A DNA stretch of 64,000 nucleotides from an uncultured Chloroflexales bacterium (lineage in GTDB: Bacteria > Chloroflexota > Chloroflexia > Chloroflexales > Chloroflexaceae). The notes beneath the pieces were generated by a model. The model saw only the letters and a program-made list of their open reading frames with translations. It was not told the DNA's origin and did not search any database. The position numbers and the translations under genes are program-made. The stretch is from the NCBI GenBank assembly GCA_937918935.1, contig CAKZSI010000009.1, positions 1 to 64,000 of the forward strand. Reading direction: 5' to 3'. Below are positions 58,700-64,000 of the stretch, one piece after another; the first letter of the stretch is position 1, and every line of letters starts with the position of its first letter.

Positions 58700-60421
58700 C
58701 TATTCCAGACGCAGCCAGGCCACCTGGTATGGCGCCAGTTCAATCACCTCTGTGCCGGCCGCGTAGCGCGCCCCGCCGATGAGGTCGCGCGCACCCCCGG
58801 CGCCCGGGGCCGGCACACGCTGGCGCGCGCTGGAGACGTTGTGCAGGCACAACACCGCCGCGTCACCCTCGGGGGTGCGGCGCTCCAGTGCAAAAACGGC
58901 CGGGTGCACCTCGAGCACCCGCTGGGGGCCGTTGGGGTGAAAGGCCCGTTCACCGCGCCGCGCGCGGATCAGTGCGGCCATGCGTTGCAGCACCGCCCCC
59001 TCGCGACGCCGGGGGTCCGCCAGGCGCGCCTCCAGGTCGGCGCGCGTCCACTTCTCACGATTAAGCGTGCGGAAGCGTCCGGTGGTTTCCAGCCCCTGGT
59101 GGTAGTTGGGTGAACCAACCAGACTGTGCACATAGACTCCTGGAACGCCTTGCATGGCCAGCATAATCGCCTGCGAGGCAATGAAGCGCCCGATGACCAC
59201 ATCCGGCGCCTCGGCGCCGGCGGGGTCGGAGAGGGCATCGAACCAGGTGCAGTTCAACTCGTAGGGGCTCTGCGAGCCGTCAGGGTTGGTCTTGTAGGAG
59301 ACGCGCCCGCCGTGGCGCTCCACCTGCGTGCACAGGTCCTGCACTTCAGCCTGGCTCAGGATGCCGGTGGCCGGCACCACGCCGATACCGTCGTGCGAAG
59401 CCAGGAAGTTGAAGAAGGCCGTCGTCGGCGAGGGCGGGGCAAGATCGCGCGCCCAGCCGCTCAGCCGGGTGGCGTCGCCAGTGGCGAAGGCGTGCAGCAC
59501 CAGCGGCGCCAGGGGAAACTGGTAAACCAGTTGGGCCTCGTTGCTCCCGTCGCCGAAGTAGCTGATGTTGTCGGCATGGGGCACGTTTGTCTCGGTAATC
59601 AGCAGCACGTCGGGCGCGGCCACGTCCAGGACGGCGCGCCAGAGTTGTACGATGCGGTGGGTGTTCGGCAGGTGAATGCAGGTCGTGCCCGGCTCTTTCC
59701 ACAGGTAGCCGATGGCGTCGAGGCGGATCAGGCTCGCGCCGTGCTCCACGTAGGCCAGCAGCACGTCGGTCATCTCCAACAGCACCTCCGGGTTGGCGAA
59801 GTTCAGGTCAATCTGATCGGCGCTGAAGGTGGTCCAGACATGGCGCACGCCGGCGGGGGTCTCGAAGGGGGTGAGCAGGGGGGTGGTGCGCGGGCGGGTC
59901 ACCCCTCGCAGGTCGGTGGCCGGGTCAACGATGTGGAAGCGGGCCTCGGCGCCGGGCACACCGGCCAGAACGTCGCGGAACCACGCGCTGCTGGCCGAGA
60001 TGTGGTTCACCACCGCGTCGAACATCAGGCGGTAGTGCTGGCCGAGGCGTTCGATGTCGGCCCAGGTTCCCAGGGCGGGATCGACGGCGCGATAATCCAC
60101 TACCGAAAAGCCGTCATCGGAGGTGTAGGGAAAGAAGGGCAGGATATGGACGCCGCTGACGACGCTGGCGAAGGTGGTGTCGAGGGTCTCACCCAGGGTC
60201 TGGAGCGGGGGGCGACCCGGCTCGCGCACCTGGTCGCCGTAGGTAATCAGGATCACATCGTTCTCGGTGAGTCGTTCGGCGGGCGGGCGTGGCCGGGCCG
60301 GGGGGCGGCGGGCCACGAAGGCGTCCAGCATGGCCAGCAGGCGCGTGGTGATCGCCGCGCCCGCCGGCTGGCCATAGATCGCTTCGAGCAGTGTGTGAAT
60401 CCGCGCGCGCGCATCACTCAT
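58700..60421 (-). CDS. GH13_18 sugar phosphorylase, probable glucosylglycerate phosphorylase
   Basis: About 573 residues of the sucrose phosphorylase subfamily. Catalytic residues: Asp nucleophile in LIRLDAIGYLWKEPG, Glu acid/base in VLLITETNVPH, and the third Asp in FLASHDGIGV. The pattern VVNHISASSAWF and VSGVHILPFFPYTSDDGFSV are family landmarks. Members split sucrose or glucosylglycerate with phosphate. The neighbouring GpgS-type gene, overlapping by four bases, favours glucosylglycerate (GGaP, E. coli YcjM type), but the acceptor loop cannot be judged by eye. Cytoplasmic. Confidence 0.9.
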   Translation of the reverse strand: MSDARARIHTLLEAIYGQPAGAAITTRLLAMLDAFVARRPPARPRPPAERLTENDVILITYGDQVREPGRPPLQTLGETLDTTFASVVSGVHILPFFPYTSDDGFSVVDYRAVDPALGTWADIERLGQHYRLMFDAVVNHISASSAWFRDVLAGVPGAEARFHIVDPATDLRGVTRPRTTPLLTPFETPAGVRHVWTTFSADQIDLNFANPEVLLEMTDVLLAYVEHGASLIRLDAIGYLWKEPGTTCIHLPNTHRIVQLWRAVLDVAAPDVLLITETNVPHADNISYFGDGSNEAQLVYQFPLAPLVLHAFATGDATRLSGWARDLAPPSPTTAFFNFLASHDGIGVVPATGILSQAEVQDLCTQVERHGGRVSYKTNPDGSQSPYELNCTWFDALSDPAGAEAPDVVIGRFIASQAIMLAMQGVPGVYVHSLVGSPNYHQGLETTGRFRTLNREKWTRADLEARLADPRRREGAVLQRMAALIRARRGERAFHPNGPQRVLEVHPAVFALERRTPEGDAAVLCLHNVSSARQRVPAPGAGGARDLIGGARYAAGTEVIELAPYQVAWLRLE

Positions 60422-62304
60422 TTCGGGGCCTCCTGCAGCGGTTGCCCTGCAACTTCCAGCGGCAGGCCGCGTATGAGCCGATACTCAGGGATGTGCAGCA
60501 TCGGGGGGCGCTCGTGGTCGCGGATCTCGCGCAGTTCCAGATGGAAGCTGCCATCCTCGCGCTGGGTGATCAGCTTCATCGTCTGGTTGACTGGTTCGAG
60601 CAGGCTGGCCCGCTGCCGCTGTTCCAGGCGCTGGATCACCACCTGGGTAATGGCGAAGGCCATCTTGGAGAGGGGGACGAGTTCCTGGTTGCGGTGGATG
60701 CGCTCCAGCAGATCGACCTGGGCCAGAGCGTTCAGCCCATGACGCTCCAGCAAGTCGATCAACAGACCGGTCTCCACGCCATAGCCGGTGAAGAAGGGCA
60801 CGGCCTCGAGGGCGAAGCGCCGCCCGGCATATTCGCCGGCGAGCGGCTGGAGCATACCCGACAGCTCAGGGTAGAACAGGTTGAGCAGGGGCCGGGCGGT
60901 CAACTCAGTGACGCGACCGCCGCCGCTGGCCTGGATCTTCTCGCCGAACTGGATGGGCCGGCGGTAGAATCCCTTACAGTAGACCAGCCGGCGTTCGCGC
61001 AGCAGGGGGCCGATCACGCCATAGACGAAGCGCGGGTGAAAGTTCTTGATGTCGGTGTCGCACCAGGCGACAATATCGCCATTCAGCACGTAGAGGCTCT
61101 TCCACAGGGCCTCGCCCTTGCCGTAGAAGGCCCCGTACTGCGGCAGGATCTCCTGATGGATATAAACCGGAATGCCGTGGGCGGCGGCGATCTCGCGGGT
61201 GCGATCCTGCGAACCGCTGTCTATCAGCACTACCTCGTCGAGCAGCGGCGTTTTCTCCATCAAGTGCTGCTGCACCTGGCCGATGATCTCGCCGATGGTC
61301 TGCTCCTCGTTAAGGGTCGGCAGACCGAGGCTGATACGCACCCCCTGCTGTTGTTTGAGCGCCAGGAGGCGTTGCAGGTCGTCGTACTCGGTGGAACTGA
61401 AGGTGTTTTCGGCGAACCAGCGGTCAACAATGGCCGAGAGATCGCGCTGTTGCTGCCAGATCTGCTGGGCCTGCTCTTCGTCCTGGGCCATACGGTGGCG
61501 GACGATGATGACCGTCGTGGCGGCCTTGCGTAGAATGCGGTCGGCGAGGGGGCCGATAGGCGCCTCGGGGTCGCCCTGGCGGCCGGTAACCCCCAGGACG
61601 ATCGCCTGGTGATCGGCCGCCTCGGCCAGAATGGCCTGTTCAACGGGGATACTACGCTCCAGCCAGCGTGTGACGCGGGGCATAGTACGCAGGGATTGCA
61701 GGCTCTCGCGCACGGCGCCATTGTCGGGCAGGCGCGGGTTGGCAGCGTAGAGCACGCTGATCCCGGCCTCGTGGCGTTCGGCCAGGGCCAGGGCCACTTC
61801 GCAGGCCAGGGGCGTATGCGGGCCGCCCCGCACAGGCAGGAGGATGCGCCGCCACTGGCCATCGCCCATCAGGCGCACCACCATCACATCACAGGGCGGA
61901 TGGCGCAGCAGACTGTCAATCGGCGGGCCGAAGAGTCGTTCGGATGAGGACTGCTCGGCCTGCCAGCCAAGCAGAATGAGGTTGGCGTGCTGCTCCTGGG
62001 CCGCGGTGCGGATGCCCTCGGTCAGGTCGTAGGCCACGGTGATGACCGTGCGCACGGGCACCTGAATGGTGCCAAGTTCGGCAATCGTATCGTGGGCGGC
62101 GCGCATGCGTCGCGTTTCCAGCATGCCTTCGCTGAGGGGTTGTCCTTCGGGCACCACCACGATGCTGACGATCACCACCTGGCCGCCGTGATGGCGGGCA
62201 ATGTCAGCCGCGAGGGGCAGCAGCAGGCGGATCTTCTCCGGGGCCCGCGCGGGCAGGAGCACCGTGTATTCTCCCGTATCATGGCCACTGTACGCAGAGG
62301 TCAT
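60418..62304 (-). CDS. Double Usp domain fused to glucosyl-3-phosphoglycerate synthase
   Basis: About 628 residues. Residues about 10-150 and 155-280 are two universal stress protein domains; the second keeps a G-2X-G-9X-G ATP-type loop (GVTGRQGDPEAPIG). From about 322 the protein is a GT81 GpgS-like transferase: SLGLPTLNEEQTIGEI, DSGSQDRT, and the DxD metal site WCDTDIKNFHPRFVYG (D at 416 and 418). It would make glucosyl-3-phosphoglycerate from NDP-glucose and 3-phosphoglycerate, a precursor of the solute glucosylglycerate. AGGAAGGAAC precedes the ATG. No phosphatase (GpgP) is visible in the window. Confidence 0.9.
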   Translation of the reverse strand: MTSAYSGHDTGEYTVLLPARAPEKIRLLLPLAADIARHHGGQVVIVSIVVVPEGQPLSEGMLETRRMRAAHDTIAELGTIQVPVRTVITVAYDLTEGIRTAAQEQHANLILLGWQAEQSSSERLFGPPIDSLLRHPPCDVMVVRLMGDGQWRRILLPVRGGPHTPLACEVALALAERHEAGISVLYAANPRLPDNGAVRESLQSLRTMPRVTRWLERSIPVEQAILAEAADHQAIVLGVTGRQGDPEAPIGPLADRILRKAATTVIIVRHRMAQDEEQAQQIWQQQRDLSAIVDRWFAENTFSSTEYDDLQRLLALKQQQGVRISLGLPTLNEEQTIGEIIGQVQQHLMEKTPLLDEVVLIDSGSQDRTREIAAAHGIPVYIHQEILPQYGAFYGKGEALWKSLYVLNGDIVAWCDTDIKNFHPRFVYGVIGPLLRERRLVYCKGFYRRPIQFGEKIQASGGGRVTELTARPLLNLFYPELSGMLQPLAGEYAGRRFALEAVPFFTGYGVETGLLIDLLERHGLNALAQVDLLERIHRNQELVPLSKMAFAITQVVIQRLEQRQRASLLEPVNQTMKLITQREDGSFHLELREIRDHERPPMLHIPEYRLIRGLPLEVAGQPLQEAPK

Positions 62305-62352
62305 CGCAACTGTTCCTTCCTCGCCGGTAGGGGATGCCGCGGGCGATCAGGC

Positions 62353-63594
62353 TTACGCGCCCGCGAGCAAAGGGACGATGTGCCGGCGCACGATCGCCTC
62401 CCACGTATAGGTCGTGCGGACGCGCTGCCGTAGCGCGTAGCGCTCATCGGCGGCGAACGCAGTAAGGATCCGTTCCGCGATCTGGTCGGGATGTTCCGCA
62501 AGCCCGAAGTACATGGCAGCGGAACCAGCCGAGGCCCGCAGGGGCGGAATGTCGCTACAGAAGATCGGAATCCCGCTCAGCCCTGCCTCCAGCACCGGGA
62601 TGCCGAAGCCCTCGTAGCGGCTGGGGAAGAGCAGACCATCGGCCAGGTGAAAGAAATCGGCGAGCATGGCGTCGGAAACGGGGCGCGGCTGGCCCTGCGG
62701 GTCGGTAAAGACTTCGTAGAGAAACACGGTAGCGTCTTCAGCGCCCGTGTCGCGGCGCAGGGCCAGCAACTCGGCCAGATAGGCGGCGTTGGTCGGATTG
62801 TGGGGCCCGGGCGGCCCCGTGATGACCAGGCGCGGCGCAGCGCCCTGGCGCTGCATGGCGCCCGCGATGGCGACGGCCAGTTCGATGTTCTTGCGCCGGG
62901 TGATGCGCGCCGGCAGGAGGAGCAGCGGAGCGGCCTCCAGTAAACGCAGCCGCTCGATCAGGTCGGCCGTCTCGGGCTCCAGTTTGAGCAACCCCCGCAC
63001 ATCAACGCCGGGCGTCACTACGGCGATCCGTTCCGGCGCCAGCCCCAGCAACTCGGCCAGGATGGAGCGCCGGTCCTCCGAGACGACCACGTAGTGCACC
63101 CCGGGCCACGCTTCGCGCAGCAGATCCCAGGGGTAGCCGGGGTGCAGTTCTGGCAGGTACAGGGGGTCGCGCCAGGCAAAGTCGTGGCACCAGGCGAGCA
63201 TCCGGGGCAGGCGACCCGCGTCGTGGAGGCGCCGCAGCGCAGCGGTGAAGGCCAGGTTCTTGTGCAGGCTCAGCACGTTGTGCACCATGAGCGCATCGCA
63301 ACCGGCGAGGGCGTCATCGAGCCACGCGGCGATGCGATCACGCAGGGTCAGGAACTCGGCGCTGACGATCCCCGCGGCCAGTTCGCGGCTGATGCGTTCG
63401 ACCATCTCGCCGCGGGAGCCGAGTTCGGGCAGGACATGCGCTTCCACCCCCGGCCCGATGTCGCCGCCTTTAGCGGCGATCATGCGCACCGACCACCCCA
63501 GGGCCGCAAGCGTCCGCCCATGGGCGGCCATGGTGATCTCGACGCCGCCGACGTAGGGCGGCCCGGCGTAGTGCAGGATGGCAACCGCGCTCAT
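62353..63594 (-). CDS. Glycosyltransferase family 4 protein
   Basis: About 413 residues with the GT-B layout: N-terminal Rossmann half beginning LHYAGPPYVGGVEITM, a C-terminal half with LPARITRRKNIELAVAIAGA, LVITGPPGPHNP and the donor-binding FPSRYEGFGIPVLEAGLSG. It probably uses an NDP-sugar; donor and acceptor are unknown, though its place inside a glucosylglycerate operon suggests it makes a related glycoside. ATG 63594 overlaps the stop of the GH63-like gene by four bases, and a 48-base gap separates it from the GpgS fusion. Confidence 0.92.
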   Translation of the reverse strand: MSAVAILHYAGPPYVGGVEITMAAHGRTLAALGWSVRMIAAKGGDIGPGVEAHVLPELGSRGEMVERISRELAAGIVSAEFLTLRDRIAAWLDDALAGCDALMVHNVLSLHKNLAFTAALRRLHDAGRLPRMLAWCHDFAWRDPLYLPELHPGYPWDLLREAWPGVHYVVVSEDRRSILAELLGLAPERIAVVTPGVDVRGLLKLEPETADLIERLRLLEAAPLLLLPARITRRKNIELAVAIAGAMQRQGAAPRLVITGPPGPHNPTNAAYLAELLALRRDTGAEDATVFLYEVFTDPQGQPRPVSDAMLADFFHLADGLLFPSRYEGFGIPVLEAGLSGIPIFCSDIPPLRASAGSAAMYFGLAEHPDQIAERILTAFAADERYALRQRVRTTYTWEAIVRRHIVPLLAGA

Positions 63595-64000
63595 ACAATC
63601 TCTCCCCGGCTCATACGGATGGCCAGATCGATGAAGCACGCCGCCGACCAGCCAAACATTGGCGCGGCCCTGGGTGGCGCTTCACCCGTCAGCGGGTGGT
63701 AGTACTCGTAGATGTCGCGCTGGCCCATCACCAGGCGCAGCGTCTGCTCAGCCAGTTCCCCGGCGAGGGCCTGAAAGCCGGTGCGCTGCAGGGCCTCGAC
63801 AAAAATATAGTTGATGTTGATCCACACCGGCCCGCGCCACATCTGCTGGGGATCGTGACGGGGATCGGAGAGGGCCACCGTGGGCAGCGGATAGGTGGCC
63901 CAGAAACTGCGCGGGTCGCGCAGATGGGCGATCAGGCGTTCGGTGATTGCGGGTGGCATGCGCCCCGTCCAGAGTGGGTAGAGGCTGAAGGGCGTCAGCA
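63591..64000 (-). CDS. GH63-like glycoside hydrolase (partial C-terminus), possible glucosylglycerate hydrolase
   Basis: Only the last ~135 residues are in the window; the frame continues through the right edge (LTPFSLYPLWTGRMPPA). The sequence QMWRGPVWININYIFVEALQ and IYEYYHPLTGEAPPRAAPMFGWSAACFIDL is characteristic of GH63/GH37-type (alpha/alpha)6 barrels, including mannosylglycerate and glucosylglycerate hydrolases. Its ATGA overlap with the GT4 gene makes it the first visible member of the four-gene operon. The function is inferred from family and neighbours. Confidence 0.8.
   Translation of the reverse strand, partial: LTPFSLYPLWTGRMPPAITERLIAHLRDPRSFWATYPLPTVALSDPRHDPQQMWRGPVWININYIFVEALQRTGFQALAGELAEQTLRLVMGQRDIYEYYHPLTGEAPPRAAPMFGWSAACFIDLAIRMSRGEIV

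What the first reader, a model, noticed from the sequence alone, without database searches (positions are those of the whole stretch)
58700..64000. Glucosylglycerate synthesis-and-recycling operon with a double-Usp/GpgS fusion
Seen: four genes with two 4-base overlaps and one 48-base gap: GH63-like hydrolase, GT4, Usp-Usp-GpgS, GH13_18 phosphorylase. Known: GpgS makes glucosyl-3-phosphoglycerate, and GH13_18 and GH63 members can degrade glucosylglycerate. The combination of synthesis and breakdown enzymes in one operon, and the fusion of two universal stress domains to GpgS, suggests stress-controlled turnover of a compatible solute. The fusion may make synthesis responsive to ATP or another nucleotide.
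Basis: partly seen in the sequence, partly recalled or inferred. Interest (0 to 1): 0.66.

Follow-up and report, generated by a model that had tools for sequence, protein, structure and literature searches.

The report
Stress-domain-fused osmolyte synthase operon, phylum-wide
A Chloroflexota bacterium carries a four-gene operon that makes and breaks down a sugar-glycerate protectant, and its first enzyme has two built-in stress-protein domains that are kept across much of the phylum but whose job is untested.

Summary
GH63 continues beyond the window to 65360. The GH13_18 enzyme is a glucosylglycerate phosphorylase (GGaP) by published signatures (TETN, PYE) and 45% identity to E. coli YcjM, not a sucrose phosphorylase. 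The GpgS domain keeps its catalytic residues. (1) The Usp-Usp-GpgS fusion is the usual GpgS form in Chloroflexota: 115 of 400 sampled genomes carry GpgS above cut-off, and every intact copy examined has the Usp pair. (2) GpgS's constant partner is the GT4, immediately upstream in 59 of 65 GT4-bearing genomes; GGaP and GH63 occur only where this GT4 occurs. So the end product is probably a glycosylated glucosylglycerate. (3) GH63 keeps the catalytic site but lacks the glycerate-binding cap of known glucosyl/mannosylglycerate hydrolases. No GpgP is linked. The Usp pair lacks the canonical ATP motif, has a conserved xGGP loop shared with transporter-associated Usp pairs, and folds like them; ATP control is neither supported nor excluded. 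A new variant of a known kind, with regulation untested.

The parts
63591..64000 (-). 3' part of GH63-like (PF22422, MGH1-like) alpha-glycosidase gene; continues to about 65360 beyond the window (589 aa from GTG)
   Evidence: PF22422 240 bits over the full gene; catalytic Asp382/Glu557 (numbering of L009:6592-8376) kept
62353..63594 (-). GT4 glycosyltransferase, likely hexosyl extension of glucosyl(-3-phospho)glycerate; ATG at 63594
   Evidence: immediately upstream of Usp-GpgS in 59 of 65 GT4-bearing genomes; N-terminal half matches mannosylglucosylglycerate synthase model NF041101; closest own-genome paralogue is the MggS-like C63 gene
60418..62304 (-). Usp-Usp-GpgS fusion, 628 aa
61867..62265 (-). 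Usp domain 1 (residues about 14-146), weakly conserved pocket
61489..61848 (-). Usp domain 2 (residues about 153-272), conserved VRGGP loop, Gly238, Gly251
60595..61434 (-). GpgS (GT81) catalytic domain (residues about 291-570)
   Evidence: MtGpgS residues from PMC2581804
58700..60421 (-). GH13_18 glucosylglycerate phosphorylase (GGaP), 573 aa
   Evidence: TETN and PYE signatures per PMC7178133

Best explanation
The operon makes and dismantles a glucosylglycerate-based compatible solute. Step 1: the GpgS domain joins glucose (probably from UDP-glucose) to 3-phosphoglycerate. Step 2: the partner GT4 adds a second hexose to glucosyl-3-phosphoglycerate or glucosylglycerate, as MggA/MggS do in Thermotogales, so that a mannosyl- or glucosyl-glucosylglycerate accumulates. 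Step 3: an unlinked phosphatase removes the phosphate. When the solute is no longer needed, the GH63-like enzyme trims the outer hexose and GGaP splits the remaining glucosylglycerate with phosphate into glucose-1-phosphate and glycerate, saving energy. The N-terminal tandem Usp module is a sensor or assembly module for GpgS, of the same kind that sits on amino-acid and ion transporters. Shown by sequence: gene order, family membership, catalytic residues of GpgS and GGaP, GGaP signatures, phylum-wide fusion and GT4 linkage, absence of the GgH/MgH glycerate cap in GH63. Inferred: the GT4 donor and acceptor, the GH63 substrate, the phosphatase, and any regulatory role of the Usp pair.
For: GpgS: 370 bits to NF010496; E54, K114, D134, D136, V186, E232, R256 equivalents in 27/27 and T187, H258, N260 in 26/27 homologues. 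GGaP: TETN and PYE present, 45% identity to YcjM. GT4 coupling: same strand, directly upstream in 59 of 65; all 44 GGaP-bearing and 22 GH63-bearing genomes among 80 also have this GT4 (Fisher p 8e-7 and 0.008, not corrected for phylogeny). Some Anaerolineae-type clusters also carry a second GT4 with 200-220 bits to the mannosylglucosylglycerate synthase model, and the window's own genome has one elsewhere. GH63: -1 site kept, 53-residue cap bearing Arg216 and the Tyr88 loop missing, Tyr375 replaced by Met. GGaP and GgH-like hydrolases tend to replace each other across the phylum (GGaP in 3 of 13 genomes with GgH versus 39 of 64 without, p 0.016), as expected if both act on glucosylglycerate. 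Usp module: Usp2 under purifying selection as strong as GT81 (dN/dS 0.03-0.08); fold matches tandem Usps and transporter regulatory domains.
Against: No enzyme was assayed. The GT4 matches the MggS model only weakly (43 bits, cut-off 640), so its donor and acceptor are guesses. No dedicated phosphatase was identified. GGaP is unlinked or absent in many genomes with the fusion (44 of 80 have it, 27 within 9 kb). The window protein has PLAGE where the proposed glucose-discriminating motif is PLSGE (20 of 27 homologues have Ser), so mannose use cannot be excluded. Nothing shows that the Usp pair regulates anything.
Confidence: 0.62

Rival explanations
1. The operon makes plain glucosylglycerate as the end product, GH63 hydrolyses it and GT4 has another role.
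For: GpgS and GGaP are the best-identified enzymes. GH63 is in the family of GgH/MgH.
Against: GT4 is more tightly linked to GpgS than any breakdown gene. GH63 lacks the cap and the residues that bind glycerate in GgH/MgH, and two breakdown routes for one solute would be redundant (inference).
Confidence: 0.2
2. Glucosylglycerate is an intermediate for a polysaccharide or glycolipid, as in mycobacterial methylglucose lipopolysaccharide, and GT4 starts chain elongation.
For: GpgS is a first step of such a pathway in mycobacteria (PMC2581804); GT4 enzymes often elongate glycans; one cluster has three GT4 genes in a row (L081).
Against: Co-occurrence with GGaP, which splits free glucosylglycerate, fits a soluble solute better. 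No branching or methylation genes were seen next to the window operon.
Confidence: 0.12
3. The GT81 domain is a mannosyl-3-phosphoglycerate synthase like that of Rubrobacter and the operon makes mannosylglycerate.
For: Best PDB match is the Rubrobacter enzyme, 262 versus 204 bits; the window has PLAGE like Rubrobacter.
Against: His258 and Asn260 equivalents match GpgS, not Rubrobacter; most homologues have PLSGE; GGaP in the operon needs a glucosyl substrate; the NF010496 equivalog cut-off is passed.
Confidence: 0.06

Closest known systems
GpgS-GGaP gene neighbourhoods (PMC7178133, PMC11009771)
   Same: Glucosyl-3-phosphoglycerate synthase and glucosylglycerate phosphorylase encoded together
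   Different: Here GpgS is fused to two Usp domains, a GT4 and a capless GH63-like gene are in the operon, and no GpgP is linked
Petrotoga/Thermotoga mannosylglucosylglycerate pathways (GpgS with MggA; MggS) (pathway details from my own knowledge of Fernandes et al. 2010; the solute in PMC3694870)
   Same: GpgS coupled to a glycosyltransferase that extends the glucosylglycerate core
   Different: GT4 here is only distantly related to MggS (43 bits); MggA itself could not be compared; Usp fusion and GGaP are additional
Mycobacterial GpgS (PMC2581804)
   Same: Catalytic domain and active-site residues
   Different: Mycobacterial enzyme is about 320-340 aa without Usp domains; a Tsukamurella copy is 302 aa
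Tandem Usp modules on amino-acid permeases and near cation antiporters (PMC12159084)
   Same: Tandem Usp with an xGGP loop in place of the usual DGS in several of them
   Different: Attached there to membrane transporters, here to a soluble biosynthetic enzyme
GH63 glucosylglycerate/mannosylglycerate hydrolases (MhGgH, TtMgH; PMC6608630)
   Same: Catalytic Asp/Glu and -1 subsite
   Different: Glycerate-binding cap and residues missing; N-terminal domain added

Membership tests
GpgS (GT81 glucosyl-3-phosphoglycerate synthase) | NF010496 equivalog cut-off (262 bits) | tested here: met
   370 bits
GpgS (GT81 glucosyl-3-phosphoglycerate synthase) | DxD, Lys114-Asp134-Glu232 network, Thr187/Val186 acceptor site, His258 | tested here: met
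   with residues from PMC2581804
GpgS (GT81 glucosyl-3-phosphoglycerate synthase) | Glucose-selective PLSGE loop | tested here: inconclusive
   window PLAGE; Ser in 20 of 27, Ala in 7
Glucosylglycerate phosphorylase (GGaP, GH13_18) | (T/S)ETN at beta5 tip | tested here: met
   TETN, residues 276-279; PMC7178133
Glucosylglycerate phosphorylase (GGaP, GH13_18) | Glu instead of Gln in loop A | tested here: met
   PYE, Glu388; PMC7178133
Glucosylglycerate phosphorylase (GGaP, GH13_18) | Phosphorolysis of glucosylglycerate, none of sucrose | not testable with these tools
   needs assay
Glucosylglycerate/mannosylglycerate hydrolase (GgH/MgH) | Catalytic Asp182/Glu419 and -1 site Trp42, Asp43, Trp376 | tested here: met
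Glucosylglycerate/mannosylglycerate hydrolase (GgH/MgH) | Glycerate contacts Tyr88, Arg216, Tyr375 and the cap segment | tested here: not met
   53-residue cap absent, Tyr88 loop deleted, Tyr375 is Met; 94 bits to NF047898, cut-off 550
Mannosylglucosylglycerate synthase (MggS) | NF041101 cut-off (640 bits) | tested here: not met
   43 bits for the window GT4
ATP-binding Usp | G-2X-G-9X-G(S/T) and Asp at the end of strand 1 | tested here: not met
   Usp1 lacks the glycines; Usp2 keeps the first and last Gly (27/27) but rarely the Ser/Thr, and has Arg159 for Asp in 25/27; this does not exclude ATP binding (PMC3673472)
Tandem Usp fold | Two Usp domains packed as in Rv2623/UspE/AF1760 | tested here: met
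   model residues about 11-273 match with Z 16.7-19.5; model pLDDT mostly 80-90 there, GT81 part poorly modelled

The most novel reading that the evidence does not exclude
The tandem Usp module is a direct allosteric sensor, of the same fold as the regulatory tails of volume-regulating cation-chloride cotransporters and related to Usp pairs on amino-acid permeases, that gates the committed step of osmolyte synthesis. It would let Chloroflexota couple osmolyte production to the same ligand that controls their transporters, without transcription.
Probability: 0.3. Interest if true: 0.75.

Novelty: new variant of a known kind. Interest (0 to 1): 0.52.

Why it matters
What Usp domains sense and do is a long-standing open question, because most are stand-alone proteins without an activity to measure. 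Here a tandem Usp is covalently tied, across much of a phylum, to an enzyme with a simple assay and a known structure, so ligand effects could be measured directly. It also predicts a glycosylated glucosylglycerate solute in Chloroflexota, for which I found no published report in the library searched.

Tried and rejected
Sucrose phosphorylase: rejected by TETN/PYE signatures and YcjM identity. GH63 as canonical GgH/MgH: rejected. Linked GpgP: none; the next gene past GH63 is a divergent KefB-type antiporter; the MPGP model gives only 30 bits, at a Cof-type HAD protein, and the histidine phosphatases are not assignable. Apparent unfused GpgS in Chloroflexota: the best candidate (G257:C993) runs into the contig end, so it is no evidence; weak below-cut-off 240-251 aa relatives exist. 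Search for the fusion in other phyla: the genome search accepts only held genome handles as centre; plasmid records showed actinobacterial GpgS matching only from residue 291 on, and Usp-only matches in haloarchaea. Rfam: no RNA family in the region. Structure: the alignment allowed was shallow, so the GT81 half and the Usp-GT81 interface are unmodelled.

Full report
What is there. The GH63 gene continues beyond the window to a GTG at window coordinate 65360, preceded by GGAGG. The next gene upstream is a divergent KefB-type cation antiporter; downstream lies a convergent Dps gene. The genome is a 4.6 Mb Chloroflexales member close to Ca. Viridilinea and Ca. Chloroploca.

The phosphorylase. 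The GH13 protein carries the two published signatures of glucosylglycerate phosphorylase, TETN at the tip of beta-strand 5 and Glu instead of Gln in loop A (PYE) (PMC7178133), and is 45% identical to E. coli YcjM, annotated as glucosylglycerate phosphorylase.

The synthase. Residues 293-606 score 370 bits against the GpgS equivalog (cut-off 262). Residues that bind nucleotide, metal, donor and acceptor in M. tuberculosis GpgS (PMC2581804) are conserved: Glu54, Lys114, Asp134, Asp136, Val186, Glu232 and Arg256 equivalents in 27 of 27 homologues, Thr187, His258 and Asn260 in 26 of 27. One site is ambiguous: the proposed glucose-selective PLSGE motif reads PLAGE in the window and has Ser in 20 of 27 homologues.

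The fusion is phylum-wide. In a sample of 400 Chloroflexota genomes, 115 have GpgS above cut-off, in open frames that are nearly all 600 aa or longer. All 30 best loci fetched from that search and all 27 copies aligned have the N-terminal Usp region, apart from truncation at contig ends. A group of close relatives (genus g9 in the sample) lacks GpgS. In a maximum-likelihood tree of the GT81 domain the fused copies lie apart from the actinobacterial GpgS; those match the query only from residue 291 on and the annotated Tsukamurella copy is 302 aa long. Two long-branch relatives fall inside the fused group; one is truncated by its contig end, the other has a 637-aa frame. The data are consistent with one old fusion but do not prove it.

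The Usp pair. The model of residues 11-273 has pLDDT mostly 80-90 and matches tandem Usps (AF1760 Z 19.5, UspE and Rv2623 about 18) and, equally well, the cytoplasmic regulatory domain of cation-chloride cotransporters (3g40 Z 20.1, NKCC/KCC about 19). A shared fold shows no function. The nearest sequence relatives outside are tandem Usps fused to amino-acid permeases, in Chloroflexota and haloarchaea, and a haloarchaeal stand-alone pair between a cation antiporter and a mechanosensitive channel. Several share a GGP loop where ATP-binding Usps have DGS. In the GpgS fusions Usp2 keeps VRGGP (Arg, Gly, Gly, Pro in 25-27 of 27), Gly238 and Gly251 (27 of 27), all at the classical ligand pocket, but lacks the Ser/Thr and the Asp of the ATP motif; Usp1 keeps little. 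Usp2 evolves as slowly as the catalytic domain within the genus (dN/dS 0.03-0.08). I infer a conserved, probably anionic ligand at Usp2. ATP is not indicated by the motif but not excluded: TTHA0350 binds ATP through a degenerate domain (PMC3673472).

In 80 GpgS-bearing genomes the GT4 is found in 65, in 59 of them directly upstream on the same strand. GGaP (44) and the GH63 (22) occur only in genomes with this GT4 (counts are not corrected for relatedness). The N-terminal half of the GT4 weakly matches the mannosylglucosylglycerate synthase model (43 bits), its closest paralogue in the same genome is a better match to that model (C63, 215 bits), and several other Chloroflexota operons hold both types side by side. 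Together with the known GpgS-MggA pairing in Petrotoga (my own knowledge; the paper is not in the library) this makes a hexosyl-glucosylglycerate the likeliest product.

The GH63. Catalytic acid and base and the -1 subsite are kept. The 53-residue cap carrying Arg216, the loop with Tyr88, and Tyr375, which hold the glycerate in MhGgH (PMC6608630), are missing or replaced. A canonical glucosylglycerate hydrolase is therefore unlikely; trimming of the outer hexose of the GT4 product is my inference. Elsewhere in the phylum true GgH-like enzymes tend to occur where GGaP is absent.

Gaps. No linked phosphatase; candidates are unlinked histidine or HAD phosphatases without clear assignment. Donor sugars, GT4 and GH63 substrates, and the effect of the Usp pair need the bench.

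Verdict. The operon type (GpgS with GGaP) is known; the double-Usp fusion, its phylum-wide conservation and the GT4/GH63 coupling were not found in the literature searched. New variant of a known kind.

Noticed in passing
L022 (CALGMA010000022.1): The nearly identical public MAG is titled 'uncultured Anaerolineae bacterium', but its operon and relatives place it in Chloroflexales near Viridilinea/Chloroploca.
   Followed up: partly
L119 (own contig C63) 8935-10788: An MggS-like GT4 gene lies divergently beside a single-domain Usp gene, a second GT/Usp association in the same genome.
   Followed up: partly
L120 3133-6615, L121 4774-7980, L122 4075-7377: Chloroflexota proteins of about 1070-1160 aa that join an amino-acid permease, Usp domains and DUF389.
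   Followed up: partly
L078 9848-11326, L093 9862-11103, L095 9506-11116: In some families the GT4 is replaced directly upstream of Usp-GpgS by a second GT2/GT81-like gene (51-57 bits to the GpgS model) of unknown function.
   Followed up: no
L090 7013-8824: A Usp-GpgS copy whose acceptor motif GGGRVTEL is degraded to ESDPVAHL, probably catalytically dead.
   Followed up: no
L085 11351-11734: A stand-alone response-regulator receiver domain gene sits at the head of a GT4-UspGpgS-GH63 operon.
   Followed up: no
L009 8754-10769 (window about 65753-67768): A KefB-type K+/H+ antiporter gene is divergently transcribed from the operon; seen only within the genus.
   Followed up: partly
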